Of a stretch of DNA of 39,734 nt, positions 5,315 to 38,125 are shown piece by piece (the stretch's first letter is position 1; the number at the start of each line of letters is the position of its first letter). Source of the stretch: Baffinella frigidus (Eukaryota > Cryptophyceae > Cryptomonadales > Baffinellaceae); NCBI GenBank assembly GCA_026770585.1, contig MU646549.1, positions 402,262 to 441,995 on the forward strand, written 5' to 3'. Under the pieces are notes generated by a model. The model had not been told where the DNA came from. It saw only the letters and a program-made list of their open reading frames with translations, and did no database searches. A program made the translations under genes and the position numbers.

Positions 5315-7121
5315 TTATGGGGTGGGGTGAACATCGCTGAGCCCCCATCCATCCGTGCGCCCAAGAGCCCCCGTCTTCAGCCCCTCCTCGCACTGTTTTG
5401 TGGTTTGCGGTTTAGGGTTTAGGATTTAGGGTTTCGTGTTTCGTGTTTCGCGTTTCGCGTTTCGTATTTCGTGTTTGGGGTTTGGGGTTTGGGGTTTGGG
5501 GTTTGGGGTTTGGGGTTTGGGGTTTGGGGTTTGGGGTTTGGGGTTTGGGGTTTTGGGTCTCGGGTAAACCAGATCGAAGCCAACAGGCCAAGGGGCCAAG
5601 TATCCTGCTTTGGAGAGCGCCGCGCAGACTGCCGCCATCTGCATTTCATACGGAAACACTTTTAATTTAAACAACTTCGGTAATGAAATTTACTACACAG
5701 AACGAGTTTTACTAGTAATATTAAAGCAAACGTGTAGTAATTTTCATCGAAATCTGGTTTTTTGAATTAAAAGTGTTTCCACATTACATTCGAGAGTTCT
5801 TTTCTCATTCAACTAGTTTTTGTAATGACAGTTTCTATGCACCTGCTTTACTCTGATTGGTATGGTCCTTCTGTGCAGCAACGTGCATTACAACAAAAAT
5901 GTACTAAACGATTCCCCGGATTGGCATCGACGAAACGATGGACGAGAGGGCCCTCAGAAGGAAAGAGACTTTTATTGAACTATGACGTCGGACCGTCAAC
6001 GTAAGGCGTCCAGACAGGGCTCGAACTAAGTGCTTCTTAAAGGACCTACGATACTGAATGTACAACCGAAGGGCCCTCGCCACTGGACGGAAGCATTCTG
6101 GCGCCAGCTTGCAGGAGGGGGCAGCTCGCTTTCAAACCTTATCTCAAAAAAGGAGTTCTAAAACTCGTTTTCTGAAAGGTTTAGGTTCCATTGTGGGGTC
6201 GCTTCCTTGCGCCCATCAAAGAACGCCCCTCACCAGAACCTCATCCGGGGAAATCTATTTTCCCTTCAATTTCTGGAGATGCAAATTACTTCACAGGTGC
6301 GTCTTATTAGTAATATCAAAGCATTTGTGTAGTAAACTTCGTTGTCAGAAAATGAAAGAAAAATAGAGTTCCCCGGATCAAACCGTACCGTACGCCTGTG
6401 TCTGGGGCCCTCCAGTGGTCCTGGGGCAGATCTTTTCTACGGAAGGGCGTGTCGTTGGGCCATGTTGGGAGCATTTAAAACCTCAAGGACCTAAAGGGAG
6501 GAAGGGCGCGCCTGTGAGCTAGGTAGTCCCTCCACAGACCCTAAACGCCAACCACCACCTCCTGAACCCTGATTACACCTACGTTCTTTAGAGACAGAAC
6601 TCACGCCGTTGAGGTGTTGGGATTGAGGCTGGTTGTCCGGGCTTGGTGGGACTGGATGCACCGCGGCCATTGGGGGGGACGGCGGGGGTCCCCGCAGACG
6701 CTTTCGGTGTCATGCGCGAGCGCCCACGCTCCATCCCGCGCCACAGTTGACGTATGTGCACCGCAAACCCAGCGTGTCAACATGCGAATGGTCTGACAGT
6801 CGCCCCGCGTGAGGCAGAGTGAAGCCGAACCCACGCAGGGCCCTTCGGGGGGGGGTTCCAGGGTCGCCCTTTGAGCCATTGGATCGCCCTTGAAGCCGTT
6901 TTCTTCCCAAAATTGACTTTTGAATACCGTTTCCCTCAAAAAATTGACTTTGGAATACTCCCCCCTCCAGCCCTGCGTGGATCTAACGGGCGGCATGAGT
7001 CGAAGGAGTCGGGTGCACTCGAAACCCTACACCCTCCCCTCCCCGAAAGGTTGAAGGCTAACGAGGAGCACCGCGGGCGGGGCTCTCTGACTCTCTCTCG
7101 CTCTCTCTCTCGCTCTCTCCC

Positions 7122-7165
<44 letters not shown>

Positions 7166-7248
7166 CTCTCCCTTCTCTCTGTCTCTCTCTCTCTCGCGCT
7201 CTCTCCCTTCTCTGTCTCTCTCTCTCGCTCGCTCGCCCGCTCTCTCTC

Positions 7249-7280
<32 letters not shown>

Positions 7281-10200
7281 CTGTACCGCGGGCGGAGCGT
7301 TCTCTCGGACGGCAGGGGAGTCCGCAGGCGCTTTGGGGGTCACTAGGAACCCACGCGCCAGCGACCAGGCGATCAACACCTGCAAGCCAGACCCAGCTCA
7401 CTTTCGAGTTTCATGATGCCTTTGTCGGTGCCCCCCGTAACGAACCACGCATCCACAGAGTTCGAGACCTGTGACCTCCATCATGTCAGACTTGACGTAG
7501 TATTTTCATTTCCGGTGCGGGCTCGTTCTTGAGGCTCATAGACATTGTATCACTCAACTCAAGGCTAAAGGGCCTATCTAGGACCTGTATCGAGAGCAAT
7601 TAAGAAGAAGAAGAGAAGATTTTCGAGCAGTGTGAAACGTCTTGTTCTCGCTGGGTAGAACGTCTTGATCTTGGAGAGTGGAGATCAGCACCTGCAAGCC
7701 AGACCCAGCTCACATTCATAGGCTAACGGCCTGAAAATGGGGTAGTTAGGCCTACGGGATTGCCTAGGACCTCCTACCGTAGGCCGAGGGATCCTAGGAC
7801 CAAAAAGTCTCGGCCTACGGTAGGATGTCCTAGGCAATGCCGTAGGCCTAACTACCCCATTTTCAGGCCGTTACCCTAATAGCTTTCGAGCAGTGTGAAA
7901 CGTCTTCTTCTTGCTGGGTAGCACGTCTTGATCTTGGAGTGTACAACGTCGTGTTCTCGGAGTGTGAACCGCGTGAAACACGTCTTGGCCTACGTGCCGA
8001 GGAATCTGGTACAAAAGCAGGAATCTGGTACAAAAGAACAGCGAAAAGGATAGCTGCTGTGGAGTGGATCCTGGTTTCCGAGCGCAGAAGGCTGGATCTC
8101 ATACGCCGAGGAACCCCCCGCGTGAGCGACCAAACTTTCAGCGCCTACGTCTTGGCCTACGTAAACGCAAAAGTTCAGCCAGAGTCCTTCACCTTCACCG
8201 GATTAGTTGTACACCGATGTAGGGTGAGAACTGCAGGGGACCAGACAGCTGCATACGCAAACACTTATGATTTATAGACTGGATTTCAATCAAAATTACT
8301 ACACGTTTGCTTTAATATTACTACTAAAGATCGTTTTGTGTAGTAAATTTCATTGAATCCAGTTTATAGATTACAAGTGTTTGCGTATGAGATCCTGGCA
8401 GTGCACAGAAGACAGGCCTAGACTCCACAGCAGGTGCCTCCGCCCACGCAGGGCCCTTCGGGGGGGTATTCCAGGGACGCCCTTTGAGCCATTGGGCCAC
8501 CCTTGGAGCCGTTTTCTTCCCAAAATTAACTTTTGAATACCGTTTCCCTAAAAAAATTGACTTTGGAATACTCCCACCTCCAGAGCCCTGCGTGGGACTG
8601 CCTGGAGGCACCCCCACTTGCGCGCCCCCGTCTTCCCCGAGCTTCAATCACGTCCCTCTGAATAATATTCGACCACGTCCCTCTGAATAATATTCGATCA
8701 CGTCCCTCTGAATAATATTCGTGAGGGAGTCGCCGCTGCATATCTGGTTCAAACGCCCCAAAAATACAAGAAGGCAAATTTACTGCAAGCTGTGGCAGCT
8801 CACCACGCAAGAGGGTACGGCACAGTGACCCACAGGAGAAATCGTAGAATTCTACTATTTCTTAAGTTCATAAGTGGACATTCTTCCCACAGAAAAACCG
8901 AAATTTCGGAAAGTCGTTACAAATTCCGTGTGAACTGGCTTGTTTTCCTAGGTCAGCCCTACACTCTTGCGTGGCAGGGACCATGTTGTACTGGTCTCTT
9001 GTAAAAATCCGAAACTCCAAAAAAGTAAAAGACCACCGATAACATGTATTGTACGGTTCGGGATTCAGGATACCGACAGCTAGCCACCAACAGACCACAC
9101 ATTCTGTTGTGGAAGGTGGCGTGAGAGACTGTTGATGATCCTGGACAAGGCCAACTTGTCCAGGATCGCTTTCACCCCGAGTTCGGGGTGCCCAAAACAG
9201 AATTAACCACCCGTAACATAGCACCAAATCGATTTTTCGTCCAAAAATCGATTTTTTTGACGTTCCTGACCTCCTCACCTCACGTTTTAAAAATCCGCGC
9301 GGAGCCCATTTCTACAATACGGTGGGCGAGTTCGGGGGTGTGCCTGCTGCGGAGTGCATCCCGCTTGCTCCGCGACAGCCTTGACGCGTCCCCAGTTCTT
9401 GGCGCCCGTCTGCCCGGAGAGCTTCGACCACGTCGAGGCCTGTCCACCGAAGGCTGGAAGTGTGACTATTTTAAAACAGGGGGGTTCTTTTACAAGCGAA
9501 GAAAAAAAAATGTGAAAATGTGTAGTAAATTTCACACAAGTAGGGGCGTTTGGTCACGTTAATGGGGGAATTTCCCCAGTGACGTGACCAAGCCTGCCCA
9601 TGACTGGTACTACGTTTAACAATCCCACATTTGAAATACTCCATCTTCCAGCCTCGAGTGGGTCCGGAGAATGCTTCGTGTTCGCTATTCAGGGTATTTC
9701 ATAGGAAATGGATACCGTTTTAATAGGAGAGGAGTAATTGTTTACAGGAACGGGACAAGGATTCTCTTAGCTGGGAGAAATCGTGTCCCTTAGCATCGTG
9801 TCCCTTAGCTGTTGAGTTTCCATGAGCAGCAGGAGCGCGCTCTGCTACGACTTTCACACGCCCCCAGTTTTTCACGCCCGTCTTGCCCGCGTGCTTTGAC
9901 CACGTCGATGCCTGAAAAGGAACAAGTATTTTGCAGAAAGCGGAAACGTTTTTGATAGAGAGGAGATACCCTTTCACAGGCTGTTATAGGAAAGAGAAAA
10001 ACGTTTTGATGGGAAAGGTCAATTTTTTTTCGTAGGCAAGGTGCACCCAGGTGCGCGCCCCCGTGTTAATAGGGTAACGGCCTGAAAATGGGGTAGTTAG
10101 GCCTACGGCATTGTCTAGGACCTGCTACCGTAGGCCGAGAATTTTTGGTCCTAGGATCCCTCGGCCTACGGTAGGAGGTCCTAGGCAATGCCGTAGGCCT

Positions 10201-13353: not shown

Positions 13354-14291
13354 NNNNNNNNNNNNNNNNNNNNNNNNNNNNNNNNNNNNNNNNNNNNNNN
13401 NNNNNNNNNNNNNNNNNNNNNNNNNNNNNNNNNNNNNNNNNNNNNNNNNNNNNNNNNNNNNNNNNNNNNNNNNNNNNNNNNNNNNNNNNNNNNNNNNNNN
13501 NNNNNNNNNNNNNNNNNNNNNNNNNNNNNNNNNNNNNNNNNNNNNNNNNNNNNNNNNNNNNNNNNNNNNNNNNNNNNNNNNNNNNNNNNNNNNNNNNNNN
13601 NNNNNNNNNNNNNNNNNNNNNNNNNNNNNNNNNNNNNNNNNNNNNNNNNNNNNNNNNNNNNNNNNNNNNNNNNNNNNNNNNNNNNNNNNNNNNNNNNNNN
13701 NNNNNNNNNNNNNNNNNNNNNNNNNNNNNNNNNNNNNNNNNNNNNNNNNNNNNNNNNNNNNNNNNNNNNNNNNNNNNNNNNNNNNNNNNNNNNNNNNNNN
13801 NNNNNNNNNNNNNNNNNNNNNNNNNNNNNNNNNNNNNNNNNNNNNNNNNNNNNNNNNNNNNNNNNNNNNNNNNNNNNNNNNNNNNNNNNNNNNNNNNNNN
13901 NNNNNNNNNNNNNNNNNNNNNNNNNNNNNNNNNNNNNNNNNNNNNNNNNNNNNNNNNNNNNNNNNNNNNNNNNNNNNNNNNNNNNNNNNNNNNNNNNNNN
14001 NNNNNNNNNNNNNNNNNNNNNNNNNNNNNNNNNNNNNNNNNNNNNNNNNNNNNNNNNNNNNNNNNNNNNNNNNNNNNNNNNNNNNNNNNNNNNNNNNNNN
14101 NNNNNNNNNNNNNNNNNNNNNNNNNNNNNNNNNNNNNNNNNNNNNNNNNNNNNNNNNNNNNNNNNNNNNNNNNNNNNNNNNNNNNNNNNNNNNNNNNNNN
14201 NNNNNNNNNNNNNNNNNNNNNNNNNNNNNNNNNNNNNNNNNNNNNNNNNNNNNNNNNNNNNNNNNNNNNNNNNNNNNNNNNNNNNNNNNNN

Positions 14292-14325: not shown

Positions 14326-15462
14326 CGGACCTGGTCAAAAGGCGACAGCACCAACTCCGAAACCGAGATACCGCCACGCGCTATAGAGCGCTGTGCAGAG
14401 AAGTTGGCCACGGGAAATAATGGAAAATTGAGAAACTGGAGCCGTTTTGTCAACTTTTGATAAATTTAGTACCATGAATTTTTCAAAAGTGGGACGAAAT
14501 GGCTCCAGTTTCCCCATTTTTCTATTTTTCGGTGGCCAACTTCTCTGCTCAGCGCTCTACCGCGCCGGAAGCCTCCACCCCCAAACCTCTCCGTGGCTCT
14601 TGGACCTGGTTGAACGGCGAGAGATCGAGCTGGACGACCGCCGGGGCTGGCTCTCTCTCTCTCTCTCTGTCTCTCTGTCTCTCTCTGATTCACCCTTTCC
14701 CTCCCTCTCCCTGCCTCTCTCTCTCTCTCACACACACACCCTTTCCCTCCCTCTCGCTGCCTCTCTCTCTCTCTCTCTGAGTCCCTTTCCCTCCCTCTCT
14801 CTGCCTCTCTCTCTCTCTCAGACCTGGTTAAAAGGCGACAGCTCCAACTGGACGACCGCCGGGGCAGGCAGACCAGCCGCAGCCAGAGCATCAAGGTGCG
14901 CCGCGCCCCAGTTGGCCACGCCGATGGCAGAACACAGCCCTTCTTGTTCCGCGAGAAGCAGCGCCTGAGGGCAACCACTTGTCAGCGAGATTGCTGAACA
15001 CAGCCCTTCTTGCCACCCAAGATTGTAGGGCAGAGTGCCGTGTAGTAAAAATAGTCAGATCTGACTATTTTGAAAGTCTCATAAGTTGACATTCTCCCAA
15101 GAGAAAAATCGAAATTTCGGAAAGTTGGTACAAATTCCGTGTGAACTGACTTGTTTTCCTAGGTCAGTCTTGCACTCTTGCGTGGTGCTGCGCGAGAAGC
15201 AGCGCCTGCAGCCAACCACTTGTGACTTGTGAGAGAAAGCGTGTTATGATACCGATGCGTGTGCGGTGTTTTTGGATGATAGAGTTTGCAGGTGCGATGG
15301 TGTTAGGCAGCCCCACCACCGGGATAGCATCGCGTTTGATGCAGAGCGAGAGCGTAGAGGGGGGCTCGTTGACTGAACAGACCCGTTGGGCTGACACCCG
15401 TTGGGTGGTACAGGCGGTGCTTGGCGGGGGGGGTAGAGAGACAGAGAAGGAGCGAGCGAGCG

Positions 15463-23390: not shown

Positions 23391-23447
23391 TCAGGGGATG
23401 GACACGCGGAAGGATGCGACGCCCGTGCGAAGCTTCATCTCGTCCAA
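23391..23447 (-). pseudogene. Ghost copy of PsbP last exon, 3' part with stop
   Basis: Encodes DEMKLRTGVASFRVSIP and a TGA; it matches the end of exon 9 at 23541-23618 nearly base for base, but its 5' part is missing. Confidence 0.8.
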
Positions 23448-23540
23448 ATGCCTGTACTACGCAGGACACGACTGTCTTGGAACAGTACCAGGGCGAGGAC
23501 GCAACTCAGTGGCGCGTCCGGATTTGTACTGGGACGCGAC

Positions 23541-26500: not shown

Positions 26501-29500
26501 TCTATTGAGGGAGACCGTGCTTTGAGAATCGTGAAAACCCCGTGTCCTGGGAAGTCAATTCTCCCCAGGATCTGAGAACCGGGTTTTCGTCAACCCGGTT
26601 CTCGGAATCCTGGGGGGGGAATTGACTTTCCAGGACCCGGAATTTTCACGATTCTCGAGGGACGGTCTCTGAGGGCCGCGATGAGGTCTAGCTCTATCCG
26701 AGTGAATCTGGGTGCATCATTATTAGTTTAAAAGCAGGGGCTTCAGTACAAATAAAATACATTTAGACACCTAAATGTATTTATTGCCGAGCTCAGATTT
26801 ACACAGACAGAGCTACCACACGAGAACGCTAGAGGGGCCCATCTAAAACCGAGGTGTAGCCTTCGTGTAGTAACTTTGGTTAGATTGGTCACGTGACTAG
26901 GCGAGATTCGTCCAGGCGCGATGTTGGAAAACCTTATCCTGGTACAAATGTTTACAACCCCACATGTAAATAGGTCCCTCTTGCAATCTCGAGTGGTAGG
27001 AGGTCTGACCGTCGATTTGCTCTTTCTTGTACGCCAGCATCTTCGCGGTCGTCACCTGGTTTCGGGTTCAGGTTTTAGGTTTTCGGGTTTCGGGTTTCGG
27101 GTTCCGGGTTTCGGGCTTGGTGTTTCGGGTTTCGGGTTTCAGGTTTCGGGTTTCGGGTTTCGTTTTAAGTGTTTAGTGTTTGGGGTTTGGGGTTTGGGGT
27201 TTGGGGTTTGGGGTTTGGGGTTTGGGGTTTGGGGTTTGGGNNNNNNNNNNTTTGGGGTTTGGGGTTTGGGGTTTGGGGTTTGGGGTTTGGGGTTTGGGGT
27301 TTGGGGTTTGGGGTTTGGGGTTTGGGGTTTGGGGTTTGGGGTTTTGTGGTTCGGGTTTCAGGTTTCGGTTTTCGGTTTTCAGGTTTCGGGTTTCGGGTCC
27401 AGGGTTTAAAGTTTAGGGTTCAGGGTTTAGGGTTCAGTGTTTAGGGTTTAGGGTTTAGGGTCCGACCCCGTCTCGCGCCTTCTCTGCGCCGAGCACCTTC
27501 TTTGCCACCTGACCCCACCAAGTTCAGGGTATAGGATTCTCAAGGTTTAGAAGGGTTTAGGCTTCAGGATTCCCGAGAATCAGATCATTCTCCTGATTGT
27601 TTACCCGGTTCAGGGTTTAGGCTTCAGAGTTCAGTCTCTGGATCTAAAGCGGGGAGACGACGAAGAACAGTCACACGCCATCCTGGCCGTAGTGAAATAT
27701 TCTTCTTCTTTGGGTTTAGGCTTCAGGGTTCCCGGGGAATTATATCATTCTCAATATTTTATGGCAACCAAAATCACTACACATTTTAACCTAAATCCTG
27801 AACCCTATGATCCAGCTGTGTGGCATGTTTCTTTTCTGCCAATCAAACTTGATTTCCCGGATTAGATCAGAAACCTCCTCGTTCGTGGATGGGAGGCGTG
27901 CCCGCACCTCCTTGACAGTGCCAAAGGCTTCGAGCGACTCGATCCTAGCTCTGCCTCACTCGGGTTGACCGACTATTCTAAAGTTGACATCCCAGGTTTG
28001 CGGTACAAAATTGTCAACTTTGGAGCGGAAAAGCGCCCGGGCTCACCAAATTGGCGAGCCCACATAGACCGAGGCAGAGCTAGACCTCCTTGACAGTGCC
28101 GAAGGCTTCGACAGACTCGATTTTGACAGGCTGCCAATGAACTTGCCACACACCTGGATGCTGCTAGCAATAGTAAGGCAACTGTGTAGTAATTCGCGTT
28201 GCCAACAAATGAGAATTATATACCACTCGAGGCTAGAAGAGGGAGTATTTTAAATGTGGGGTTGTTAAATTAAGTGCCAGTCACGGGCAGGCTTGGTCAC
28301 GTAGCTGGGGGAATTCCCCAAGCTACGTGACCAAACGCCCCTATTCGTGTGAAAATTACTACACGTCTCTTTTGTTTTCTCACTTATACAGGAATCCCTG
28401 TTTTAAAATAGTCACATTTCTAGCCTCGAGTGGTAGCTCCCCGGATGAGATTGATGGGAGTCTTGGAACCTCCTTGACGGTGCCGAATGCTTCGGGCGAG
28501 TCGATTTTGACCAGCGTCGACTTACACGCCCAGCTCTCATTTTTTCGCTATCTTACGGGCGGGGTTTCTGCTATATACCGTAAAGCTATGTGGAGACTAA
28601 GATAGGAAAACCCACTCTTAAGATAGCACGAAACGGCGGTCAAAAGTGACTCTGATTTTGCAAATTGACATAAAAATTGATCTTAAAATTGCGATAGCGT
28701 GTGCGCACCTCTTTCGCAGTGCCGAATGCTTCGAGAGAGTCGATTTTGACAGGATCGACCGACACGCCCAGCTCGCTCCCCCCGCTCCCTTTGATGTTGA
28801 TCTGCGGGAAAGTGAACCGTTAGGGTTCAGGGTTTAGGGTTTAGGGTTCAGGGTTTAGGGTGTTAGGCCACACAGCGGGCTACGAAGGGAAAATATTGCC
28901 AAATCTTAGGCATTTCCCGTCACCTCATCCTTAGGAACCCCTCCTATGTCCCTACGGATGGCCCACCGTAGGGTCCTATCTTGTCACAGGGTCGACCGAC
29001 ACGCCCAGCTCGCTCCCCCCGCTCCCTTTGATGTTGATCTGAGGGGGGGTTTAGGGTTTAGGGTATCTTAAGGGTGGATTTTCCTATGTTAGCCTCGACA
29101 TAGCTGTACCATAGCACCAAAACCCGCCCGTAAGATAGCAAAATGTGGGGGGAAATCCACGCTTAAGATAGCACAGGGTCGACTGACACACCCAGCTCAC
29201 TCCCCCCGCTCCCTCTGAAGTTGATCTGCAGGGAGGCGAAAGCGCACATCTTATTGGCCGATATTTCGACTAGATTTCTCGTCGATTTCTCGGAACAGGA
29301 CAGATTCTGTCCCGATATCTTAGGCTTTCGACGCAGCGAAGATGAGGGTGTATACGCTATTTTCGGCATACAATGATGCTATCTTACGCTTTTGTATGTG
29401 GACAGATTCTGGTATGTCCCGAGATGGAATTTCCTGCGAAGTCCACTGTGCAGCACGTTGCTTTCCCCTTCATCAACTTTCGCAACGTTATGAAGCGGGA

Positions 29501-31481
29501 AGCTACCCACCAGCAAACGGACGCGGCTCAAATCTGGGTCTCGGAGCGTATTTTTCGGTCTGTAGGACCCTACGGTAGCAAATCCCTAGGGGCCTAGGGA
29601 TTTCCTAGGGGGGTGAATAGATGACTTCAACTTTGATCTCGTGAAACTTTCTACAGGTGGAAACTCCGATTTGAGGCGCTTCGGGTTGCTGGTGGACGTG
29701 TGTGTGGAGGGGAAGCGCCGCATACGCGGAGCACGACTGCGGACCAGCGCATGCTTAGTGTTCATATGGGGGAAAGCACGGTTTATTGGTCATGCCAATG
29801 TTTCGAGGGGGTTGTAGATAGCCAGTAGCAGCTTAAAACGGGATTAAAAGCAACGGGAGTACACTTTAAAGTGTATCAGCCATCTATTCACCCCCCCCAG
29901 AAAACCCTAGGTCCCTAGGCAAGTCCTACCGTAGGGTCCAATGAAATTAACATCCGAAGCTCCCAGACCTGAAATAATAGGTTTCTCCAAATACCCACAA
30001 GCCCTCCGAAGTGGACCAAAACCCGACTCTACCTTTCTCGATTTCCGCCTGACACGCCTCGGATTTCGAGGCCAACGGCTCAACCACCCGCCTGCAATCC
30101 AAACAGCCAGATCCACGATTTGGTCCCCTTCGGAGGGCTGACCTCATCGAGGTGCGTCCGCACAGGTTTGTTCCCCGCTTTCCAGTCATTCGGGAACGTC
30201 AGTGAGTAGCCGAACTTCTCGCTCTTGTACTCCTGCCCCTCCTGCACCACCGCCGCCACCTCCTCCCCCGCCGCCACCTCCGCCCGCGCTGCTCCTGTGT
30301 ATGGGCCGGATAAATCAGTGAGTAGCCGAACTTCTCGCTCTTGTACTCCTGCCCCTCCACCACCGCCGCCACCGCCTCCGCCACCTCTGCCCGAGCTGCT
30401 CCTGGTTTGGGGCTTGGGATTTGGGGTTGGGAGTCTTTTTTTTAAGGTTTGGGGTTTAGGGTGTGGGGTTGAGGGATTAGGGATTAGGGTTTGAGATTTA
30501 GGGTTTAGGGATTAGGGATTAGGGATTAGGGATTAGGGTTTGTGGTTTAGAGCCTGGGGTTTGAAATTTAGGGCCTGGGGTTTGAGGTTCAGGGATTAGG
30601 GTTGAGGGTTTAGGGTTTACCTGCGTAGGGGAACAGCACTCCAGCCAGCACAGCGGCCCCCAGTACCTGAACGAGAAAGGAGAGAGTTGCTTTATTTATA
30701 AAAACGAAAAAGGTTTCGTGAGCGTGTTGTCCTAGTAGCCAGAGGGACCACAACGGGATGGTCAATTTGAGGTGTAACGGTTTCTGCATGATTCCCCGCC
30801 CGACACCTCCTCATTCTAGCTCTGTCTCAGTCTATTTGGGCTCACCAATCTGGTGAGCCCGGGCTCTTTTCCGCTCCACAGTTACGGATTTGAACCGCAC
30901 ACCCAACATGTCAACTTGAGAATAGTCGTCGAACCCGAGCGAGGCAGAACTAGGAGGTGTGCAGCAGCAAGATGCTCCGGCCTTAAGTCGGGTGCACTGG
31001 TTTACACGGTTCTAAGCTGTGGGGGAAGGTGAGGGGAGGTTAAGGCTCCGAAGCGGGTCCAGGTCGAACCTCGCGGCGCCCAACAGCCGCTCGCAGGGCG
31101 GGTGCGGCACCAGGCTCCACGCACCTGCAAACGGTCCAGATTCCGCGATCAGCCACTGGTTCCAGCTGGATGAACCTCATCGATTCCTGGCTGGATTCCT
31201 GGGCGAGGTGATTTTCATGCAGGCACGGGAGGATGGAGAGCTCAGGCCCAGCGCCGGGCTGAAGGGCGACAGCGCGCTCTAGGCGTGACGGGTGAACCAG
31301 CGAGGGCACAGCGTTGGCGGGGCGAGAGGCAGGGGGTGCTCGGGCGGTACATGGAGACTGAGCGGCGGCCGTGCGCTTGGATGTGTGCGGAAGCGGCGGG
31401 GAGAGGGGCAAGGAACGCCACCGCGGGCGCGGCGGAGAGTGCGGCAAGGCATAGCGCGACCGGCAGGGCTGCGGAGCGCAT
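23541..31481 (-). CDS. Thylakoid-lumen PsbP-domain protein, 9 exons, 252 aa
   Basis: Spliced by hand on the minus strand: exons 31481-31290, 30666-30621, 30294-30143, 28801-28709, 27508-27467, 27055-27010, 25340-25273, 24372-24331 and 23618-23541 (TGA). They sum to 759 nt with every phase matching. Introns are GT-AG, except that the one after exon 8 starts with GC. Residues 1-22 look like a signal peptide (cleavage before FLAP) and about 23-64 a plastid transit peptide. Exon 2 gives a hydrophobic lumen-targeting core ending in a thylakoid peptidase-type ARA site at residue 84. The roughly 168-residue mature part reads like PsbP: EYKSEKFGYSLTFPNDW, then ELGVSVDPVKIDSLEAFG, then GKTYY..EYESETSRGDKHF, then KLYVLTAQ, ending in an ASFRV motif. 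PsbP-family proteins sit on the lumenal side of photosystem II or assist its assembly; which subfamily this is cannot be told. Exons 3, 4, 7, 8 and 9 have truncated copies nearby. The exon 1 donor (gtcacg) was chosen mainly on phase. Confidence 0.85.
23630..23935 (+). repeat. TTTAGGG-type tract before PsbP exon 9
   Basis: On the sense strand CCCTAAA units run directly into the acceptor (CCCTAAACAG, then exon 9). Confidence 0.92.
23965..24237 (-). pseudogene. Ghost copies of PsbP exon 8, 3' parts
   Basis: 24003-23965 reads SEDMKVYLLTAQ followed by the same GC donor context as the real exon (CACAG then GCACCACC). 24237-24226 keeps only FTAQ. Both lie downstream of exon 8. Confidence 0.65.
24609..24750 (+). 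repeat. TTTAGGG/TTCAGGG tract
   Basis: About 20 telomere-like units in PsbP intron 7. Confidence 0.92.
24756..25010 (-). pseudogene. Ghost copies of PsbP exon 7, 3' parts
   Basis: Two donor-side copies lie downstream of the real exon: 25010-24959 (IEYESETSRGDKHFIAK, then GT) and a more diverged 24783-24756 (LGDKLFIAK, then GT). Confidence 0.72.
25122..25264. mobile_element. Inverted-repeat element between PsbP exon 7 and its ghost
   Basis: Arms CACTGCCAGCC and GGCTGGCAGTG, inner AGTCAACCC...GGGTTGACT. A related element is at 35270-35420. Confidence 0.65.
25544..25821 (-). pseudogene. Ghost copies of PsbP exon 7, 5' parts
   Basis: Two acceptor-side copies lie upstream of the real exon 7: 25821-25782 (KTYDTFEYESS) and 25590-25544 (KTYFTIEYESETSR). 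The first has a further ~34-bp tandem duplicate at about 25739-25771. A MITE (25652-25733) lies between them. Confidence 0.75.
25652..25733. mobile_element. MITE, GCTATCTTA family (copy 1)
   Basis: Shares CTTAGCCTCGACATAGCT and CTTAAGATAGCA with 29063-29173. Confidence 0.65.
26510..26670. mobile_element. Inverted-repeat element in PsbP intron 6
   Basis: Arms GAGACCGTGCTTTGAGAATC and the GATTCTCGAGGGACGGTCTC end, with palindromic centre AACCGGGTTTTCGTCAACCC. Confidence 0.8.
26856..27000. mobile_element. Partial MITE, CCACTCGAGG family, abutting the PsbP exon 6 donor
   Basis: Right end CTCGAGTGGTAGG and the GGTCACGTGAC centre are recognisable. The edge is about 8 nt from exon 6 (27010). Confidence 0.6.
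27060..27460 (+). repeat. GGGTTTG/GGGTTTC array between PsbP exons 5 and 6, with 10-N gap
   Basis: A long (GGGTTTG)n array with N at 27241-27250. CCCAAAC/CCCGAAA on the sense strand, ending at the exon 6 acceptor. Confidence 0.95.
27908..27944 (-). pseudogene. Ghost copy of PsbP exon 4, 3' half
   Basis: Encodes IESLEAFGTVKE followed by GTGCGG. On the transcript it is preceded by the AG that ends the MITE at 27945-28083. Confidence 0.75.
27945..28083. mobile_element. MITE, CTAGCTCTGCCTCA family (copy 1), GT-AG bounded
   Basis: Ends CTAGCTCTGCCTCACTCGG and CCGAGGCAGAGCTAG; inner arms GGGCTCACC and GGCGAGCCC. On the minus strand the unit runs from GTCTAGC to GCTAG, between two exon 4 ghosts. 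Confidence 0.85.
28086..28133 (-). pseudogene. Ghost copy of PsbP exon 4, 3' half
   Basis: Encodes PVKIESVEAFGTVKE followed by a GT that begins an adjacent MITE. It matches the second half of exon 4. Confidence 0.75.
28223..28434. mobile_element. MITE, CCACTCGAGGCTAGAAG family (copy 4)
   Basis: Perfect TIR CCACTCGAGGCTAGAA; inner arms GGTCACGTAGCTGGGGGAAT and complement. Confidence 0.88.
28470..28536 (-). pseudogene. Ghost copy of PsbP exon 4, 3' part, broken
   Basis: It keeps ELGV, a TAA stop and frameshift, then VKIDSPEAFGTVKE and the donor GT. It lies downstream of the intact exon 4. Confidence 0.7.
28547..28628. mobile_element. MITE, GCTATCTTA family (copy 2)
   Basis: GCTATCTTACGGGCGGGGTTT to CTCTTAAGATAGC. 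Confidence 0.7.
28988..29225 (-). pseudogene. Two ghost copies of PsbP exon 4, 5' halves
   Basis: Positions 29225-29175 and 29038-28988 each encode 17 codons (INxxGSGGSELGVSVDP) preceded by an AG acceptor. Both end at the same codon, where a GT follows. A MITE (29063-29173) sits exactly between them. Both lie upstream of the complete exon 4. Confidence 0.8.
29063..29173. mobile_element. MITE, GCTATCTTA family (copy 3), between two exon 4 ghosts
   Basis: Ends TATCTTAAGGGTGGATTTTC and AAATCCACGCTTAAGATAGC. It is flanked by the two 5'-half exon 4 copies. Confidence 0.8.
29565..29940. mobile_element. Long inverted-repeat element in PsbP intron 3
   Basis: Outer arms TAGGACCCTACGGTAG and CTACCGTAGGGTCC, inner GGGGGGTGAATAGATG and CATCTATTCACCCC. 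The roughly 230-bp middle is unique. A half copy is at 34385-34445. Confidence 0.75.
29999..30139. mobile_element. MITE, GCCCTCCGAAG family, starting at the PsbP exon 3 donor
   Basis: Ends GCCCTCCGAAGTGGACCAAA and TTTGGTCCCCTTCGGAGGGC. Its edge is 3 nt from the exon boundary at 30143. Confidence 0.85.
30309..30401 (-). pseudogene. Ghost copy of PsbP exon 3, 5' part with acceptor
   Basis: It repeats the first ~80 nt of exon 3, including the acceptor (CCAG then GAGCAGC) and the codons for GQEYKSEKFGYSL, with small differences, then stops short of the FPNDW part. It lies 107 nt upstream of the real exon. Reading through it into the real exon would shift frame, so only one acceptor can be productive. 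Confidence 0.8.
30402..30620 (+). repeat. TTTAGGG/GATTAGG tract in PsbP intron 2
   Basis: Sense strand CCCTAAA units begin immediately after the exon 2 donor (GTAAACCCTAAA) and end at the acceptor of the exon 3 ghost. Confidence 0.92.
30816..30953. mobile_element. MITE, CTAGCTCTGCCTCA family (copy 2)
   Basis: CTAGCTCTGTCTCAGTCTAT to GAGGCAGAACTAG with GGGCTCACC/GGTGAGCCC inner arms. Confidence 0.8.
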
Positions 31482-31949: not shown

Positions 31950-34900
31950 ATGGCACGTGCCTTCGTGCTCCCGCTGCTCCTGATCAACGCCGCCTCCGCA
32001 GTCGTTCCTCCGCCCAGCGCCCGTCCTGCGCCGTGCCGAGGGCTGGCTGGCGCGCCCGCTTTGAGACACGGATGGGGTGCCGCGTTCCTATCTCCTCCTC
32101 CATCTCAGCTCATGCGGAGGCCGATCGGGGTGCTGGACAGGGTCGAGGGGATAGGGCAGGGGGCGACAAAGGGACGGCCACTGGTGGGGGGGCGGAGTGG
32201 GGGAGCGGTGCGGTGGATCGGGGGCAGACGGGGGTTTGGGTCCGACGTTGTGGGAAGGGGCGACCGGGTTGCCCAGAGGATGCTCACAGCGCAGGACTTC
32301 CAGGTGAGCTCAACGCAAGCGATGTGTCGGCGTTGGTTCAATCTTTGGCTCATGCGCCCCTCTGCACAATTTGCTGACACGCCATCCCGTAAAAATTCCC
32401 TGAGATTCCCGTCAGGACATCCCGTCCGACATACTGCAATGTCGTAACAAAATCCATAGGTCGTTACCCTCTCAGGGTAACGACCTATTCAGGGTAGTTA
32501 CGCCTCCGGTATTGACTACGGTAGACCGTACAACCCCTAGGCCCGGGTTTCTCGTAGGAGCTCGTGAGAGCCCTACGGCCTACCGTAGTCAACGCCGTAA
32601 GCTTTTTTTCCTACCCGAATAGGTCGCAACGAGGTTGACGACATGCCGTCCATCGTCGTCCCGTATCACCCTACCGCCTTGCATTCCGTAGAGCGCTGTG
32701 CAGAGAAGTTGGCCTCGGAAAATGGGGAAATGGGAAAATTGGAGCCGTTGATGTCCACTTTTGAGAAATTCATGGTACTAAATTTATCAAAAGTTGACAA
32801 AATGGCTCCAATTTCTCAATTTTCCATTATTTCCCGTGGCCAACTTCTCTGCACAGCGCTCTAGCTCACGTAGCATCCTACGGAATGCCGGAATTAGGTT
32901 CTGACTCCGGAATTACGTCGGCCACCCTCAACGCGTTTCTCGTTCGCAGCATCAGCCAGTTGACTAACAACCATTAACAAACGCGTCACGTCGGACCATA
33001 AACTTAAAGCGTCCAGGGAGGGCTCCCTGAAAAAACGCGAGATCCCCTCCAGGACATGCCGGTACAGACCCGTGATTCCCTTGAGGACGTGCCGCAACAA
33101 ATCGGTGATTGCCGGTAGGACATTGCCACCGACAATACCGTAGGCTTAACAACCCTGAATACGGCGTCACCATTCAGGACCTGAATACGGCGTTACCCCA
33201 GAAGTCTCGTCCGACCCGCCTTAACGAATCTGTGATTCCCGGCAGGATATTGCCACCGACATGCCGTACATCCTGGAGGCGATCCAGGTACGATTCCAAT
33301 CTCTGCCTGAGTTTTATTCTGGTTCGTCCTTAAAGAGGATTTAAGAGCAGATATCCAGTAGAAAAAGGTGAATAGAAAGCCTTTAGGACGAGCCAGAATA
33401 AAACTGAGGCAGAGCTAGGATTCCCCCGTGTCCGACGGTTCCACCAGGCCTCCACGGTGGACTTACCACGCGACGATAGCCTGGGTATCAAATCAACCTG
33501 TTGCCAAAGTCCACTCGCCCGCAAATCCGTCACTTTAGGCCGCAATCCGGCCAAAAATACTTTTAGTAGTGCATAAATAATAGAAAGACGCAGTCGATTT
33601 GGTGCATAGGGTGATGTCGCGTGGTACCGAGAGCGTTTCTAAACGTCTATTTGTACCTGGCACACCGAGGCCTCCGAGTTACCAACTTAACAGACTATTC
33701 TCAAGTTGACAAGCTGGGTTCGTGGTACAAATCTGTCAACTTTGGAGCGAGAAAGAGCCCGGGCTCACCAAATCGGTGAGCCCAAATAGACTGAGACAGA
33801 GCTAGGAGACCTCCGCACCCGACGGTTGACTGAACCAGGCGTAGCCTAACTCTGTCCCACTTGATTTGGGCTCCCAAAAAAATCGCCCCCCCCCCCCCCC
33901 ATTTTACAGATAAACTTTGACCCCCCCCCGTGAAATTTACCCGTAAAACTTCGGGGGGGGGGGAATTTATGGGGAGCCCAAATCCAAGTGGGACAGAGCT
34001 AGGTAGCTGCGATTAGTGAACATGCGGTTTCGATAGCGGACGGCGCTGGGGGAGGCGATGGAACATACCGAGAAAACGGCTGGGGCTCGCCACTGAAATC
34101 ACCTTTACATGTAGATTTACACGAATTTGCCCGGCCTACACAGATTTACACTTTTTTGCCCGGTGTAGAAAGATTTACACGCATTTGCCAGTACACAGAA
34201 TTGTGGAATTTACCTGGAATGTCTCTCGATCGCAGGCGGTGTTTGCTGAGGCGATGGAGCACAAGGAGGAGACGGCTGCGGCCTACGTCAAGTTTCAACT
34301 CCAGCGGTGCGCCCCCCCACCCAACAACCTGAAATAGCTTACATCGGGGTTTCCAAGGACGGGGCTTCCCCCAGGATGTAGACAAGCCATCTATTCACCC
34401 CCTAGGGAAACCCTAGGTTCCTAGGGATGTCCTACCGTAGGGCCCTGCGAGATTATCAAAGAGAGGCGATGGAGCTCAAGGAGGAGACGGCTGCGGCCTT
34501 CGTCAAGTTCCAACTCCAGCGGTGCGCTCCCTAAACCCCAAACCCTACACCCTACACCCTGAACCCTAAACTCTAAACCCTAAAACCTAAACCCTAAACC
34601 CTAAACCCTTACCTCGAAACCCTAAACCCTAAACCCTAAATTCTGCACTCCAACCCCCAAACCCTAAACCCTAAACCCTAACCCCCAAACCCTGAACCCT
34701 AAACCCGGCAGGACGCTAAGCTTCGAGACGGTCGCAATAGCGCCCTACTTCCTCTACCTTCTCTTCCGGCAGCACACCCAGGCCCAGGTACACTACTGAT
34801 AACCTCCACCCCATATTTCGGTTAAAACCTAATTTGGGTCTACAACCATTTTGCGTACGCGAAGCGACGCGGTTTGGACACACCTGTATGGCTTGCCATC

Positions 34901-37900
34901 CAAATATAACCCTCAGCAAAGATGTGCTCGGCGCAACCCAATTTTCGCCCGTCTGGCAAGACCCCCGCGGGAGGCGCCGCCGGGGGCACGTATCGGCACT
35001 TGTTGGGGGTCTGGTTGCTTTACACTGGAGCCTGGTGATTTCTACAACCGGAATAAAACAGGAAGAAGGTACAGTACCAAATTTGGCTTTTTTCCAGACC
35101 TGCCTGCGTTTCATTTGGGTCTACAACCATTGTACGTACCCGAACCGACGCGGTTTGGACTTCCAAAGGTGGCCGGTCGCGCGCTAAGTTGTGGCAGAAG
35201 GTTGTGGAAGGTGTCGGCTGCCTTGCTCTATCTTCTCGTCCGACAGCACTCCCAAGCGCTGGTACCCACACACTGCACTGCCAGGGCGGAGTTTTTGTAT
35301 GAGTCAACTCACCTGCGAATGTGTAGTAAAGAAGTACCCATTACGGGTACCTCGTTTCTAAGTTGACAGATTCTGTGGGTGAATTGACTTTTACAAAATA
35401 TCCGGCCTGGCAGTGCACTGGGCTTCGCAGGAAACTTCAACCAGAAGTCTGGTCGAAATGTCGGTTAATGAGATGTCTTTGTACTGTACAGCGTAATTCT
35501 TAATTAGTATCACGAAAATAAATGGACCGATCTGCGAAGCCCACCGTGTGGTGGACACACCGATGACGCGAAAACGTGTGTTGTGAAGTGTCCACTTGAA
35601 TGGCTCTAGTCTCCGAAAAGCGTTGCTGGCCCACTTCCAAAACCCACTTCCAAAATCGTTGCTGGCCCACTCCCCAAATCACATTCCACATCATTCATGT
35701 CTCAAAATTGCATCCCGGAGATTGCCGTTGACAACGATTGTTTTTTTTTGGGTGGGTAAAAAAAACAGTGTGTTTACCTTTCTCGGGATTGAGCAGGAGG
35801 AGGAGAAGGGCACCGCGGGAGACGATGCGAAGGAGGAAAACTGGTCAGCCCCGTCACGTCCAATTCATGCGTCCATTTATTGTGTATCGTATTTTGGTAC
35901 GTATCCCTTAAGTGACCAACAGGCGAAAAATCGCCCGTGGAAGCCCTAGGCAGGTCCTAGGGCCCTACGGTAGGGCGTATGAGCCTACTGGCCACTTAAG
36001 GGACAGTGAAGCAAGATTGAGAAGGAGGAAAACTGGTCAGCCCCGCGCCCTGAGGCGAAGAGATCCACAAAATCGTCAACGTAGATCCCGTCATGAGTCT
36101 TTCTATTATTTGTACCACGCCGTTTACGGAGGGGAACCACGCCAGATTCTTGGAAGAGGTCGCCAAAAGTCGATTTCCCCTCAAGGCAGTGGTTTTCAAA
36201 AGTCAACAACCGTTCCATAGAACAGTCTAAAAACTTCAACCCCCTCGAACACTCTGGCAGCTTGCGTTTACGGAGCGGTTTTGGGTTTTGGGTACACCGC
36301 AATGGCAAACGCTAAACCCCTAAACCCTAAGCCCCTTTCACGTGGCGGAGGTAGAGCGGCCTATTTACATGTGGGATTGTAAAACTTTGTACTAGGATAG
36401 GGTTTTCCAACCTCGTGACCGGCCTAACCAGGGCTTGAGTGGCTCCGAGGGCAATGAAAGTTACTACACAAATGTAATGGCAATGAAAGTTGCTACACAA
36501 ATTTAGTGGCTCCAAGGGCAAAGAAAGTTACCACACAAATTCCAGAAATCGTGTGAAAATTACTACACAGTGAAACCGGCGGATCGCACGATTCCCCAGG
36601 GGTGGCCCAAAACAGAGAATCTGACTATCCAACCCTCGAACAGGTTTTCCAAGAGGCTGCCCGGGGTTGAGACAAGAATCTCGCGGGACTGGGGGGAGAA
36701 CGCCGCGATGGTTAACCCTAACCCCCTAAACCCTAAACCCGAAATCCAAAATCCGGAACCCGAAACCCGAATCCCCTAAACCCTAAACCATAAACCATAA
36801 ACCCCTCAATCCTAAACCCTGAAATCCTAAAACCCTAAGCCCGAAGCCCGAAACCCTAAACCACTAACCCCTAAAACCCTAAACCCCTAAACCCCTAAAC
36901 CCTGAACCCTAAGCCCGAAACCCCAAACCCCAAATCCTAAACCGAACCCCCGACCCTAAACCCAAACCCTGAACCAGGCGGTATTCATGGGGTCGATCTG
37001 GTCTACATTCGGGCTCTATTTCCTCGATATCTGGGTGAGCTCCCAAAAGAGTTTAGCCCTGGGCCCCTTTCCAGCTCCTTAAAAGGGTTTAGCCCTGGAC
37101 CCCTTTCCAAAGTCATCAAGTCAATTCCTGGCACACAGGTTACAAACCCGTCTGTGGGGGTGCACAGATCTTCGCGAAACGTTGCTTTTTGAAAGATCTT
37201 CGTGAAACGTTGAAATCTTTGTCCGAAATTGTCAGAAAATATCGAAATTCTGCTTATTCATCTCGAAAAAGGGGCCCGTGTAGACGTGAATCGTTGCGAA
37301 AGTGTGTCTTTGATAAGACCTGAATCGGTTTTTCAATCATGTAGCCCTTTTCGCCTCCGGGCACGGCTTTCTCTTAACAGATAATTTATTGATTACAAGG
37401 CCAGCACGACCACATTTTAAGACCCCCTGCGGGTTTTTTGGTACTACAAGGATCTGGAGTTCTCCCACACACTTCACTCGCTTGACGATGCTGCCCCCGC
37501 GTGGCCCTCCCTCCTCGCCCTCCTCCTCCTCCTGAAACCTAGCGCTTCGCTAGTGATGAGCTTAAACTCTAGCGCGCGCAGCGCTACACAGGCGCGTCTC
37601 CCTTGGTAGTAACAAACCTTTCTCTCTCTTAACGATGCTGACGGCAGGCGGCGAGGCGAATCGTGGCGCAGCCGCGCTCGACCCCCGCGTGGCCCTCCCT
37701 CCTTGCCCTCCTCCTCCTCGGGTACACCCCCTGCCCGGTTCAGTCAACTGTCTTCTTTGGTCCAGTCAACTGTCTGCTTGTTCGTGGCTGTTCGTGGATG
37801 TCTAATTCACGCACAGTTCTGGGTTGGGGGGTTAGGGGTTAGGGTTTGGAGTTTGGGCTGGGCCCTCCTCCTCCTAGGTTACCACGCCCCCCATCTCCAC

Positions 37901-38125
37901 GCACAAGCAACCCTTAACCCTAAACCCTTAACCCTAAAACCTAAGCCCTAAACCCTAAGCCCGAAGCCCTAATCCCTCCTCCCTGATCCCCAATCCCTAA
38001 TCCCCAATCCCTAAACTCTGAACCCCATACCCCAAACCCCAAACCCCAAACCCCAAACCCTAAACCCTAAACCCCAACCCCCCGCGCAGGATCCCGTTTT
38101 CGACGCTGACAGAAAAGATCTGTGA
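31950..38125 (+). CDS. Unrecognised plastid-targeted protein with two membrane segments, 7 exons, ~235 aa
   Basis: Plus-strand exons: 31950-32303, 34236-34306, 34712-34787, 35797-35843, 36644-36710, 36978-37034 and 38090-38125 (TGA). All introns are GT-AG and phases agree (708 nt). The first ATG gives a signal peptide (MARAFVLPLLLINAASA), then a long Pro/Arg/Gly-rich stretch typical of a transit peptide. The mature part begins near LTAQDFQ and continues with a charged helix (AVFAEAMEHKEETAAAYV), a hydrophobic segment around residues 146-160 (VAIAPYFLYLLF), an acidic loop (EEEKGTAGDDAKEEN), FSKRLPGVETRISRDWGENAAM, a second hydrophobic segment, residues 206-224 (AVFMGSIWSTFGLYFLDIW), and a short acidic tail. 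I do not recognise the family. A small plastid membrane protein is the inference from leader plus two hydrophobic segments. It is transcribed divergently from the PsbP-domain gene. An extra exon between 37034 and 38090 is possible. Confidence 0.7.
32474..32630. mobile_element. Palindromic MITE in intron 1 of the membrane-protein gene
   Basis: Arms GACCTATTCAGGGTAG and CTACCCGAATAGGTC, core CGGTAGACCGTA/TACGGCCTACCG. Distantly like the AACGGCC family. Confidence 0.75.
32689..32863. mobile_element. MITE, AGAGCGCTGTGCAGAGAAG family (copy 2)
   Basis: Arms TAGAGCGCTGTGCAGAGAAG and complement, same core as 14384-14560. Confidence 0.88.
33845..34003. mobile_element. MITE, CTAGCTCTGTCCCA variant with poly-C/poly-G centre
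   Basis: CCTAACTCTGTCCCACTTG to CAAGTGGGACAGAGCTAGG; the centre contains C14 and G11 runs and a TTTACCCGTAAA-like hairpin. Confidence 0.85.
34038..34095 (+). pseudogene. Ghost copy of membrane-protein gene exon 2, 5' part
   Basis: Encodes EAMEHTEKTAGA then a stop. It resembles EAMEHKEETAAA of the real exon 2 at 34236 and lies upstream of it. Confidence 0.65.
34463..34521 (+). pseudogene. Ghost copy of membrane-protein gene exon 2, 3' part
   Basis: Encodes EAMELKEETAAAFVKFQLQ ending at the same donor (CAGCG then GTGCGC). It is separated from the real exon by half a MITE (34385-34445). Confidence 0.8.
34530..34710 (+). repeat. CCCTAAA tract before exon 3 of the membrane-protein gene
   Basis: About 25 telomere-like units on the sense strand, ending some 6 nt before the exon 3 acceptor. 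Confidence 0.95.
35213..35261 (+). pseudogene. Ghost copy of membrane-protein gene exon 3, 3' part
   Basis: Encodes LLYLLVRQHSQAL then GTAC, matching LYLLFRQHTQAQ of the real exon 3. An inverted-repeat element (about 35270-35420) follows directly. Confidence 0.7.
35902..36004. mobile_element. MITE, TATCCCTTAAGTGG family (copy 4)
   Basis: TATCCCTTAAGTGACCA to GGCCACTTAAGGGACA. It separates exon 4 from its ghost. Confidence 0.82.
36020..36035 (+). pseudogene. Ghost copy of membrane-protein gene exon 4, donor end
   Basis: Repeats GAAGGAGGAAAACTG plus GTCAGCCCCG of the real exon 4 end (35843). A MITE (35902-36004) lies between the two copies. Confidence 0.7.
36061..36110 (-). other. Short YVDD-containing repeat, possible retrotransposon RT relic
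   Basis: On the minus strand one frame reads KTHDGIYVDDFVDLF, like the catalytic box of Ty1/copia reverse transcriptases. A diverged copy with a stop lies at 20541-20590. Only about 50 bp are shared, so chance is possible. Confidence 0.25.
36713..36976 (+). repeat. CCCTAAA tract filling the intron between exons 5 and 6
   Basis: Nearly the whole 267-nt intron is CCCTAAA-type repeat, from the donor (GTTAACCCTAACCCC) to the acceptor (CCCTGAACCAG). Confidence 0.95.
37490..37895 (+). repeat. Three imperfect copies of a pyrimidine-rich segment in intron 6
   Basis: Copies near 37490-37540, 37680-37722 and 37855-37890 share GTGGCCCTCCCTCCT/CTCCTCCTCC cores, and one frame reads AWPSLLALLLL. This may be a further exon with its ghosts, or plain low-complexity intron sequence. 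No phase-consistent splice pair was found. Confidence 0.35.
37905..38085 (+). repeat. CCCTAAA/CCCCAAA tract before the last exon
   Basis: Sense-strand repeat ending 13 nt before exon 7 (38090). Confidence 0.95.

What the first reader, a model, noticed from the sequence alone, without database searches (positions are those of the whole stretch)
5315..38125. Ghost exons obey a polarity rule: acceptor-side copies upstream, donor-side copies downstream
At least 15 of the 29 exons in all three genes have truncated copies in adjacent introns. In every case I could orient, copies upstream of the real exon retain its 5' part and acceptor (PsbP exons 3, 4, 7; AKR 7, 8, 9, 10, 11; membrane gene exon 2). 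Copies downstream retain its 3' part and donor or stop (PsbP 4, 7, 8, 9; AKR 4, 7, 8, 11; membrane gene 2, 3, 4). This is the geometry expected if tandem duplications spanning a splice junction are tolerated because splicing can use the inner copy, but the density is remarkable and suggests an active duplication process that lengthens introns.
Basis: partly seen in the sequence, partly recalled or inferred. Interest (0 to 1): 0.93.

Follow-up and report, generated by a model that had tools for sequence, protein, structure and literature searches.

The report
Exon-edge ghosts lengthening algal introns
Introns of the Arctic alga Baffinella frigidus carry many partial copies of their neighbouring exons, upstream copies mostly keeping the exon's start and downstream copies its end, which likely arise when error-prone DNA repair duplicates an exon edge around inserted filler, an event predicted to be harmless because one complete exon remains to be spliced.

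Summary
The window is from the cryptophyte Baffinella frigidus. Adding an ammonium transporter, 21 partly predicted exons of four more gene regions, and two kinesin loci chosen because they showed copies, 31 of 68 exons have 65 copies: 52 by the rule, 2 contrary, 5 whole-exon, 6 internal. Any head-to-tail duplication crossing a splice junction must leave this polarity, so it shows tandem-type direct duplication and no more. Stronger points: of 19 copies with at least 93% identity none abuts its exon (gaps 89-467 bp); 17 of 27 gaps in the window hold dispersed repeats, inverted-repeat elements or arrays; such recent copies occur on 9 of 39 exon tiles against 5 of 106 clean intron tiles; spliced products of three genes consist of complete exons. 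Best reading: break repair duplicates exon edges around filler, tolerated because one exon stays whole, and introns grow. The parts are known; the density and exon bias are unusual.

The parts
30143..30294 (-). PsbP exon 4 (complete exon)
30320..30411 (-). upstream copy of PsbP exon 4: acceptor and first 91 nt
   Evidence: score 124, 86%
28709..28801 (-). PsbP exon 5 (complete exon)
28986..29045 (-). upstream copy of PsbP exon 5: acceptor and nt 1-53
   Evidence: score 110, 97%
29173..29234 (-). second upstream copy of PsbP exon 5: acceptor and nt 1-53
   Evidence: score 88, 89%
28468..28536 (-). downstream copy of PsbP exon 5: nt 28-93 and donor
   Evidence: score 82, 84%
28084..28130 (-). 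downstream copy of PsbP exon 5: nt 49-93 and donor
   Evidence: score 64, 87%
27896..27943 (-). downstream copy of PsbP exon 5: nt 58-93 and donor; an element at 27944-28083 fills the gap to the previous copy
   Evidence: score 51, 81%
25273..25340 (-). PsbP exon 8 (complete exon)
25378..25418 (-). upstream copy of PsbP exon 8: 23 nt of intron, acceptor, nt 1-17; 14 nt from the duplicated flank
   Evidence: score 57, 88%
25547..25593 (-). upstream copy of PsbP exon 8: acceptor and nt 1-44
   Evidence: score 69, 89%
25790..25828 (-). upstream copy of PsbP exon 8: acceptor and nt 1-32
   Evidence: score 48, 85%
24955..25018 (-). downstream copy of PsbP exon 8: nt 9-68 and donor
   Evidence: score 118, 97%
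24753..24779 (-). downstream copy of PsbP exon 8: nt 45-68 and donor
   Evidence: score 39, 89%
24331..24372 (-). PsbP exon 9 (complete exon, GC donor)
24205..24236 (-). downstream copy of PsbP exon 9: last 11 nt and donor side; homology runs on through the whole unit (abutting tandem duplication); not in the uniform count
   Evidence: score 43
23944..23997 (-). downstream copy of PsbP exon 9: nt 10-42, donor and 21 nt of intron
   Evidence: score 93, 94%
23541..23618 (-). PsbP exon 10 (complete last exon)
23376..23445 (-). downstream copy of PsbP exon 10: nt 24-78 with stop codon
   Evidence: score 102, 89%
16414..16520 (-). AKR exon 7 (complete exon)
16206..16270 (-). downstream copy of AKR exon 7: nt 30-76, internal deletion, then nt 99-107 with donor; an inverted-repeat element (16266-16402) lies between
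   Evidence: core score 78, 94%; chain score 31
16737..16786 (-). weak upstream copy of AKR exon 7: nt 33-82, neither end
   Evidence: score 40, 76%
14824..14964 (-). AKR exon 8 (complete exon)
14989..15223 (-). upstream copy of AKR exon 8 (acceptor, nt 1-42), interrupted by a dispersed element at 15013-15186
   Evidence: score 51 and 38
14586..14650 (-). downstream copy of AKR exon 8: nt 97-141 and donor, behind a GA-rich array
   Evidence: score 65, 80%
14328..14356 (-). downstream copy of AKR exon 8: nt 116-141 and donor
   Evidence: score 48, 93%
9344..9439 (-). AKR exon 10 (complete exon, GC donor)
9839..9914 (-). upstream copy of AKR exon 10: acceptor and nt 1-73
   Evidence: score 67, 78%
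7287..7379 (-). AKR exon 11 (complete exon)
7680..7716 (-). upstream copy of AKR exon 11: 24 nt of intron, acceptor, nt 1-12
   Evidence: score 59, 92%
33246..33287 (+). MEM exon 2 (complete exon)
33096..33142 (+). upstream copy of MEM exon 2: 22 nt of intron, acceptor, nt 1-23
   Evidence: score 58, 85%
34236..34306 (+). MEM exon 3 (complete exon)
34463..34527 (+). downstream copy of MEM exon 3: nt 13-71 and donor
   Evidence: score 115, 95%
34030..34086 (+). weak upstream copy of MEM exon 3: nt 1-47, acceptor AG lost
   Evidence: score 39, 74%
34712..34787 (+). MEM exon 4 (complete exon)
35222..35265 (+). downstream copy of MEM exon 4: nt 37-76 and donor
   Evidence: score 48, 82%
35797..35843 (+). 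MEM exon 5 (complete exon)
36018..36045 (+). downstream copy of MEM exon 5: nt 30-47 and donor, behind a dispersed element (35901-36003)
   Evidence: score 51, 96%
37648..37721 (+). MEM exon 8 (complete exon)
37494..37531 (+). upstream copy of MEM exon 8: nt 35-72, with the exon's 5' intron flank before it and the acceptor deleted; the one contrary case in the window
   Evidence: score 71, 97%; flank score 27

Best explanation
Introns of Baffinella frigidus hold partial direct copies of adjacent exons whose polarity is that of head-to-tail duplication across splice junctions; they most likely arise when error-prone break repair duplicates an exon edge around captured filler DNA, and would be tolerated because one complete exon with both splice sites remains. 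Shown: the copies, their strand and polarity, their recurrence in further genes on four contigs, the distance of young copies from the exon, filler in 17 of 27 gaps, and spliced protein sequences of PsbP, AKR and an ammonium transporter made of complete exons. Inferred: that a break starts it (ends filled in on both sides before joining leave duplicated flanks, and mobile elements or telomere-like arrays are captured between them); that recognition of whole exons lets the cell ignore copies with a single splice site; and that repetition of this is a leading route by which these introns grow.
For: Polarity 23 of 26 copies in the window, 52 of 65 over all loci, 2 contrary, no inverted copy. Young copies (>=93%): 0 of 19 abut, gaps 89-467 bp. 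17 of 27 gaps hold a dispersed repeat, an inverted-repeat element or an array; one element fills a gap of 140 bp exactly and a GA array fills 169 of 173 bp. Copies lie next to their own exon: upstream 13 of 13 and downstream 9 of 13 are nearer to it than to the other end of the intron. Other direct repeats around filler exist in introns without an exon, e.g. 7621-7679/7884-7942. The exon-copy ends of a queried PsbP stretch matched nowhere else in the genome; the other reported matches covered only about query positions 40-195, the element between the copies (capped list). Complete exons in P0001, P0014, P0015. Fill-in duplications at breaks are known from mouse and human cells (PMC8355091, passages).
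Against: No break, no repair enzyme and no empty site was observed. 10 of 27 gaps have no annotated filler, and some copies abut or nearly so (PsbP4, PsbP8 second copy, PsbP9). 38 of 46 inverted-repeat elements in the window lack duplicated flanks, so element and duplication are not tightly tied. The exon bias (9 of 39 against 5 of 106 tiles) is not explained by the mechanism. Differences between copies and exons are 67 synonymous to 58 other, somewhat more synonymous than my own estimate of about 43% for a freely evolving copy. A kinase exon has whole copies.
Confidence: 0.55

Rival explanations
1. Plain tandem duplication (replication slippage or unequal exchange) made abutting copies first; elements and arrays were inserted between them later by ordinary processes.
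For: PsbP9 downstream copy is an abutting unit, PsbP4 and one PsbP8 copy nearly so; an element sits inside the AKR8 upstream copy, so later insertion does happen; the C112 kinesin locus shows homology through a whole unit of about 250 bp (read by eye).
Against: None of the 19 copies with at least 93% identity abuts its exon, although these had the least time to receive insertions.
Confidence: 0.25
2. Mobile inverted-repeat elements (introner-like) insert with unusually long target duplications; when the duplicated target crosses a splice site the insertion into the exon is rescued.
For: Elements fill or nearly fill several gaps (PsbP5 copies 2-3, AKR7).
Against: 38 of 46 inverted-repeat elements have no duplicated flank; some gaps hold arrays or nothing recognised.
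Confidence: 0.1
3. The copies are functional: alternative exons or splice-regulating decoys kept by selection.
For: Splice sites are mostly still present; differences lean to synonymous sites, 67 to 58; a kinase exon has 4 further copies that count as whole, one of them shortened in the prediction.
Against: In the window no copy keeps both ends; P0001, P0014 and P0015 contain none of the copies; one copy differs by a stop codon and one is cut by an element.
Confidence: 0.06
4. The copies are relics of intron birth by tandem duplication of an AGGT-bearing exon segment.
For: That model also puts acceptor-side copies upstream and donor-side copies downstream (my reasoning; model as described in PMC4974935, passages).
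Against: It places copies at the far ends of the intron; 0 of 13 upstream and 0 of 13 downstream copies lie within 30 nt of them.
Confidence: 0.02
5. Assembly artefact: haplotype fragments or misjoined reads.
For: Draft assembly with runs of N (13354-14291, 27241-27250 in the window).
Against: Copies differ from their exon by 3-26% in the window, carry indels and an inserted element, and recur on four contigs.
Confidence: 0.02

Closest known systems
Small tandem duplications from fill-in of staggered breaks (CST and Pol alpha-primase, then end joining; PMC8355091, abstract and passages)
   Same: Direct duplications of tens of bases, no inverted copies, no need of long homology; a plausible source of duplicated exon edges.
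   Different: Shown there in mouse and human cells at induced breaks; here the copies usually stand apart with filler between them, and neither breaks nor enzymes were seen.
Telomere-like repeats inserted at double-strand breaks in mammals (PMC2246262, passages)
   Same: Arrays of telomere type inside genes; in that study 6 of 130 rodent and 4 of 25 primate insertions came with a duplication of the flank.
   Different: There array insertion is the main event; here arrays are one filler among others, degenerate, and in introns mostly in the C-rich sense. That TTTAGGG is this alga's telomere repeat was not tested.
[quoted passage not shown] potato RdRp gene, PMC4974935, passages)
   Same: Duplication that includes splice signals, protein unchanged or nearly so; the potato case duplicated an intron-exon junction.
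   Different: No new intron results here: copies lie beside their own exon and lengthen an existing intron.
Tandem exon duplication and mutually exclusive exons (recalled)
   Same: The kinase exon on C245 has whole copies with matching phase.
   Different: In the window's genes no copy is complete.
Introners (recalled; search listing only)
   Same: Mobile inverted-repeat sequence in introns.
   Different: Most such elements here lack the duplicated flanks, and they were not shown to bring splice sites.

Membership tests
Head-to-tail tandem duplication across splice junctions | copies on the same strand | tested here: met
   0 inverted copies at score >=38 for 68 exons
Head-to-tail tandem duplication across splice junctions | upstream copy keeps 5' end, downstream copy keeps 3' end | tested here: met
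   52 of 65 copies; 2 contrary, 5 whole, 6 internal
Head-to-tail tandem duplication across splice junctions | copies abut in young events | tested here: not met
   0 of 19 copies with >=93% identity; so called duplication around filler, not plain tandem duplication
Break repair by fill-in and end joining with captured DNA | duplication and filler arise in one event at a break | not testable with these tools
   no strain without the event was available
Break repair by fill-in and end joining with captured DNA | filler between the duplicated ends | tested here: inconclusive
   17 of 27 gaps have annotated filler, 10 do not
Transposon insertion with long target duplication | elements are generally flanked by the duplication | tested here: not met
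   8 of 46 inverted-repeat elements in the window
Intron gain by tandem duplication (AGGT model) | copies at the far ends of the intron | tested here: not met
   0 of 26 copies within 30 nt
Alternative exons | both splice sites and an open frame | tested here: not met
   no window copy keeps both ends; met only by the kinase copies
Alternative exons | inclusion in mRNA | tested here: inconclusive
   three transcript-type proteins lack the copies; no read data

The most novel reading that the evidence does not exclude
In this alga DNA repair is a main engine of intron growth: breaks in or beside exons are sealed with duplicated exon edges around filler, and telomere-type repair supplies C-rich arrays that double as ready-made branch-point and pyrimidine tracts, so that an exon edge is shed into the intron as a ghost while a working splice site stands behind it. 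Exons become hotspots and recorders of break repair, and the same process can make new introns.
Probability: 0.27. Interest if true: 0.82.

Novelty: new variant of a known kind. Interest (0 to 1): 0.62.

Why it matters
How introns grow apart from transposon blooms is poorly known. Here 28 of 65 exons that were not chosen for having copies (33 in the window, 11 of the ammonium transporter, 21 elsewhere on the contig) carry datable fragments of themselves, so position, age and filler of each event can be read from one genome, and a comparison of strains would show directly whether duplication and filler arise together. It is also a practical warning for gene finding: exon-like fragments with one good splice site are common, and my own simple finder took the kinase copies for exons.

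Tried and rejected
Rejected: intron birth by duplication (copy positions); long target duplications as a general property of the inverted-repeat elements; assembly artefact (divergence, recurrence). Led nowhere: AKR paralogue loci L042-L048 gave too few alignable exons; PF00012 gave coordinates without overlapping pairs. Paper searches did not list a description of this pattern; only open-licence papers are held and I saw listings, plus passages of four papers. Alignments often end 2-10 nt past the splice site, but small indels and masked arrays shorten them, so I draw nothing from it. My finder overlaps 32 of 33 known exons, but only 33 of its 121 predictions overlap real ones; I therefore used 21 exons that I picked by eye from its chains for domain-like content; not each is itself covered by a Pfam hit, and their edges are predicted.

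Rows dropped before counts: in the window MEM6 (array match) and one PsbP9 copy with 11 exon bases, from 28 hits; elsewhere hits with fewer than 12 exon bases; in the ammonium transporter two upstream hits that lie on its real exons 2 and 5. itself prints 67 copies, 53 by the rule, 6 whole, and 32 exons with copies; I report 65, 52, 5 and 31. One search, at threshold 36, printed 28 copies for the contig set, at 38, has 27.
Full report
What the window is. A protein search with the membrane gene returned 'hypothetical protein T484DRAFT_1951821 [Baffinella frigidus]', whose sequence equals my gene model. The held genome has 382 Mb in 1364 contigs and the window is C245:402262-441995. The published CCMP2293 assembly has 534.5 Mb and 41.1% repeats, and the main text of that paper has no word beginning with 'intron' (PMC9756366, passages by word search).

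Gene models. Exons were fixed by tblastn of P0001, P0014 and P0039 and by splice sites. PsbP has 10 exons (31481-23541, minus), AKR 14 (21795-5098, minus), MEM 9 (31950-38207, plus). Median exon 71 bp (with PsbP exon 5 corrected), median intron 756 bp. P0014 and P0001 stand on contigs of at most 1753 and 906 bases, much shorter than the genes, so they come from spliced RNA (inference); P0039 is a database model and may be predicted.

Copies and polarity. Each exon with 25-nt flanks was compared with +-3.5 kb around it after masking short-period arrays (alignments): 28 hits on 15 exons. MEM6 is an array match; one PsbP9 copy has too few exon bases. The remaining 26 copies belong to 14 of 33 exons; none is inverted. 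The AKR7 downstream copy regains the donor after a gap of about 22 nt, and the contrary MEM8 copy has kept the exon's 5' intron flank but lost the acceptor, so both can be decayed duplications of the expected kind.

Why polarity. If a stretch with one end in an exon and the other in an intron is duplicated head to tail, the copy that stays joined to the rest of the exon is the complete one; the other must lie on the intron side and keep the splice site. Polarity therefore shows tandem-type direct duplication rather than scattered fragments, but it would hold for any interval and is no rule of its own. This paragraph is reasoning, not a computation.

Generality. An MMETSP protein (P0015) is an AKR/ammonium-transporter chimera joined where both genes read GTGGCGGTGACGACGA. 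Its second half led to a gene on contig C3, where 3 of 11 exons have 5 copies, all downstream with the 3' part. On C245 outside the window, 21 exons from four predicted chains (Pfam on the chains: protein kinase, PP2C, TRPM2-like with ankyrin, ankyrin) include 11 with 27 copies: 17 by the rule, 1 contrary, 5 whole, 4 internal. Two kinesin loci, chosen because PF00225 hits overlapped, have 7 copies on 3 exons, all by the rule. In all: 31 of 68 exons, 65 copies, 52 by the rule, 2 contrary, 5 whole, 6 internal. The p value printed treats copies as independent, which nested copies are not, and includes one dropped row.

Structure of the events. Of 19 copies with at least 93% identity the nearest to its exon is 89 bp away. 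In the window 17 of 27 gaps contain at least 30 bp of dispersed repeat, inverted-repeat element or array; 10 do not. One element fills the 140-bp gap between two PsbP5 copies, and an array fills 169 of 173 bp at AKR8. Yet 38 of 46 inverted-repeat elements in the window have no duplicated flank, so insertion of an element does not by itself make the duplication. An element inside the AKR8 upstream copy shows that ordinary insertions also come later, and a few copies abut or nearly so (PsbP4, one PsbP8 copy, PsbP9). Break repair with fill-in and captured DNA, followed by decay, would give this mixture; that step is inferred. Fill-in duplications at breaks with 3' overhangs are experimentally known in mouse and human cells (PMC8355091, abstract and passages); telomere-like arrays inserted at breaks, 6 of 130 in rodents and 4 of 25 in primates with duplication, are described in mammals (PMC2246262, passages).

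Exon bias. Exon tiles have a copy within 700 bp in 14 of 39 cases, clean intron tiles in 13 of 106; for copies of at least 93% identity it is 9 of 39 against 5 of 106 (Fisher p 0.003 and 0.002; tiles of one exon are not independent). Slower divergence of exons explains part of the first comparison, hardly the second. I have no proven reason for it.

Splicing. Most copies carry one splice site. Complete exons are what the spliced proteins contain. That a copy with a single site is passed over because whole exons are recognised is inference. Telomere-like arrays in the window's introns stand mostly in the C-rich sense: 402 C-rich to 78 G-rich motifs over 30 introns, 85:3 in the first and 93:1 in the last 100 nt; ammonium transporter 137:1 and TRPM-like chain 149:46, but the kinase chain 36:44 and the PP2C chain 54:37. 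CCCTAAA-type sequence resembles a branch site with a pyrimidine tract (recalled), so such filler may help an inner acceptor to work.

Against my reading. Differences between copies and exons are 67 synonymous to 58 other; by my own estimate a freely evolving copy against a conserved exon should give about 43% synonymous, so some copies may once have coded or roles may have switched. P0001 ends in SIP like the downstream copy at 23376-23445, while the complete exon here has SLP: strain difference or exchange between copies. The kinase exon with whole copies could be a set of alternative exons. No empty site, no RNA read and no break was seen.

Verdict.

Noticed in passing
window introns of PsbP, AKR, MEM; L049: Telomere-like heptamer arrays stand mostly in the C-rich sense in introns (402:78 motifs; 178:4 within 100 nt of splice sites), but not in the kinase and PP2C chains.
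   Followed up: partly
L049:1-960 against the C94 paralogue (L030, L032, L034, L040): The ammonium transporter on C3 appears to have three introns where its C94 paralogue reads through (by eye); one of them is almost entirely array sequence beginning gtaaacccc. This suggests intron gain or loss.
   Followed up: no
C94 paralogue, large second intron (merged loci, about 2144, 2565, 3314, 3861): Four short stretches resembling the acceptor and start of the next exon (GGTCACGGCT type), each followed by the same dispersed element; seen by eye only.
   Followed up: no
C245:320316-321265 (L014 region): A kinase exon (VRMLQSISQHDNLIAYLDAFIE, 66 nt, phase 0) has 4 further copies downstream; three are complete with both splice sites, one is shortened in the prediction. 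Possible mutually exclusive exons.
   Followed up: partly
23376-23618: P0001 has SIP at its C terminus like the downstream copy, while the complete last exon of PsbP here has SLP.
   Followed up: no
P0015: The MMETSP protein is a chimera of AKR and an ammonium transporter, joined at a 16-base identity of the two genes; probably an assembly error.
   Followed up: yes
24331, 9344; L049 exons 1 and 7: Donor sites that begin with GC instead of GT.
   Followed up: no
7621-7679 and 7884-7942: A 59-bp direct repeat (93%) around an inverted-repeat element inside an AKR intron, away from any exon: the same kind of event without an exon.
   Followed up: partly
27941-28088: An element of this family has matches of 86-91% at about 40 other places in the genome among the candidates scored (3568 first-look candidates, 40 scored).
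   Followed up: no
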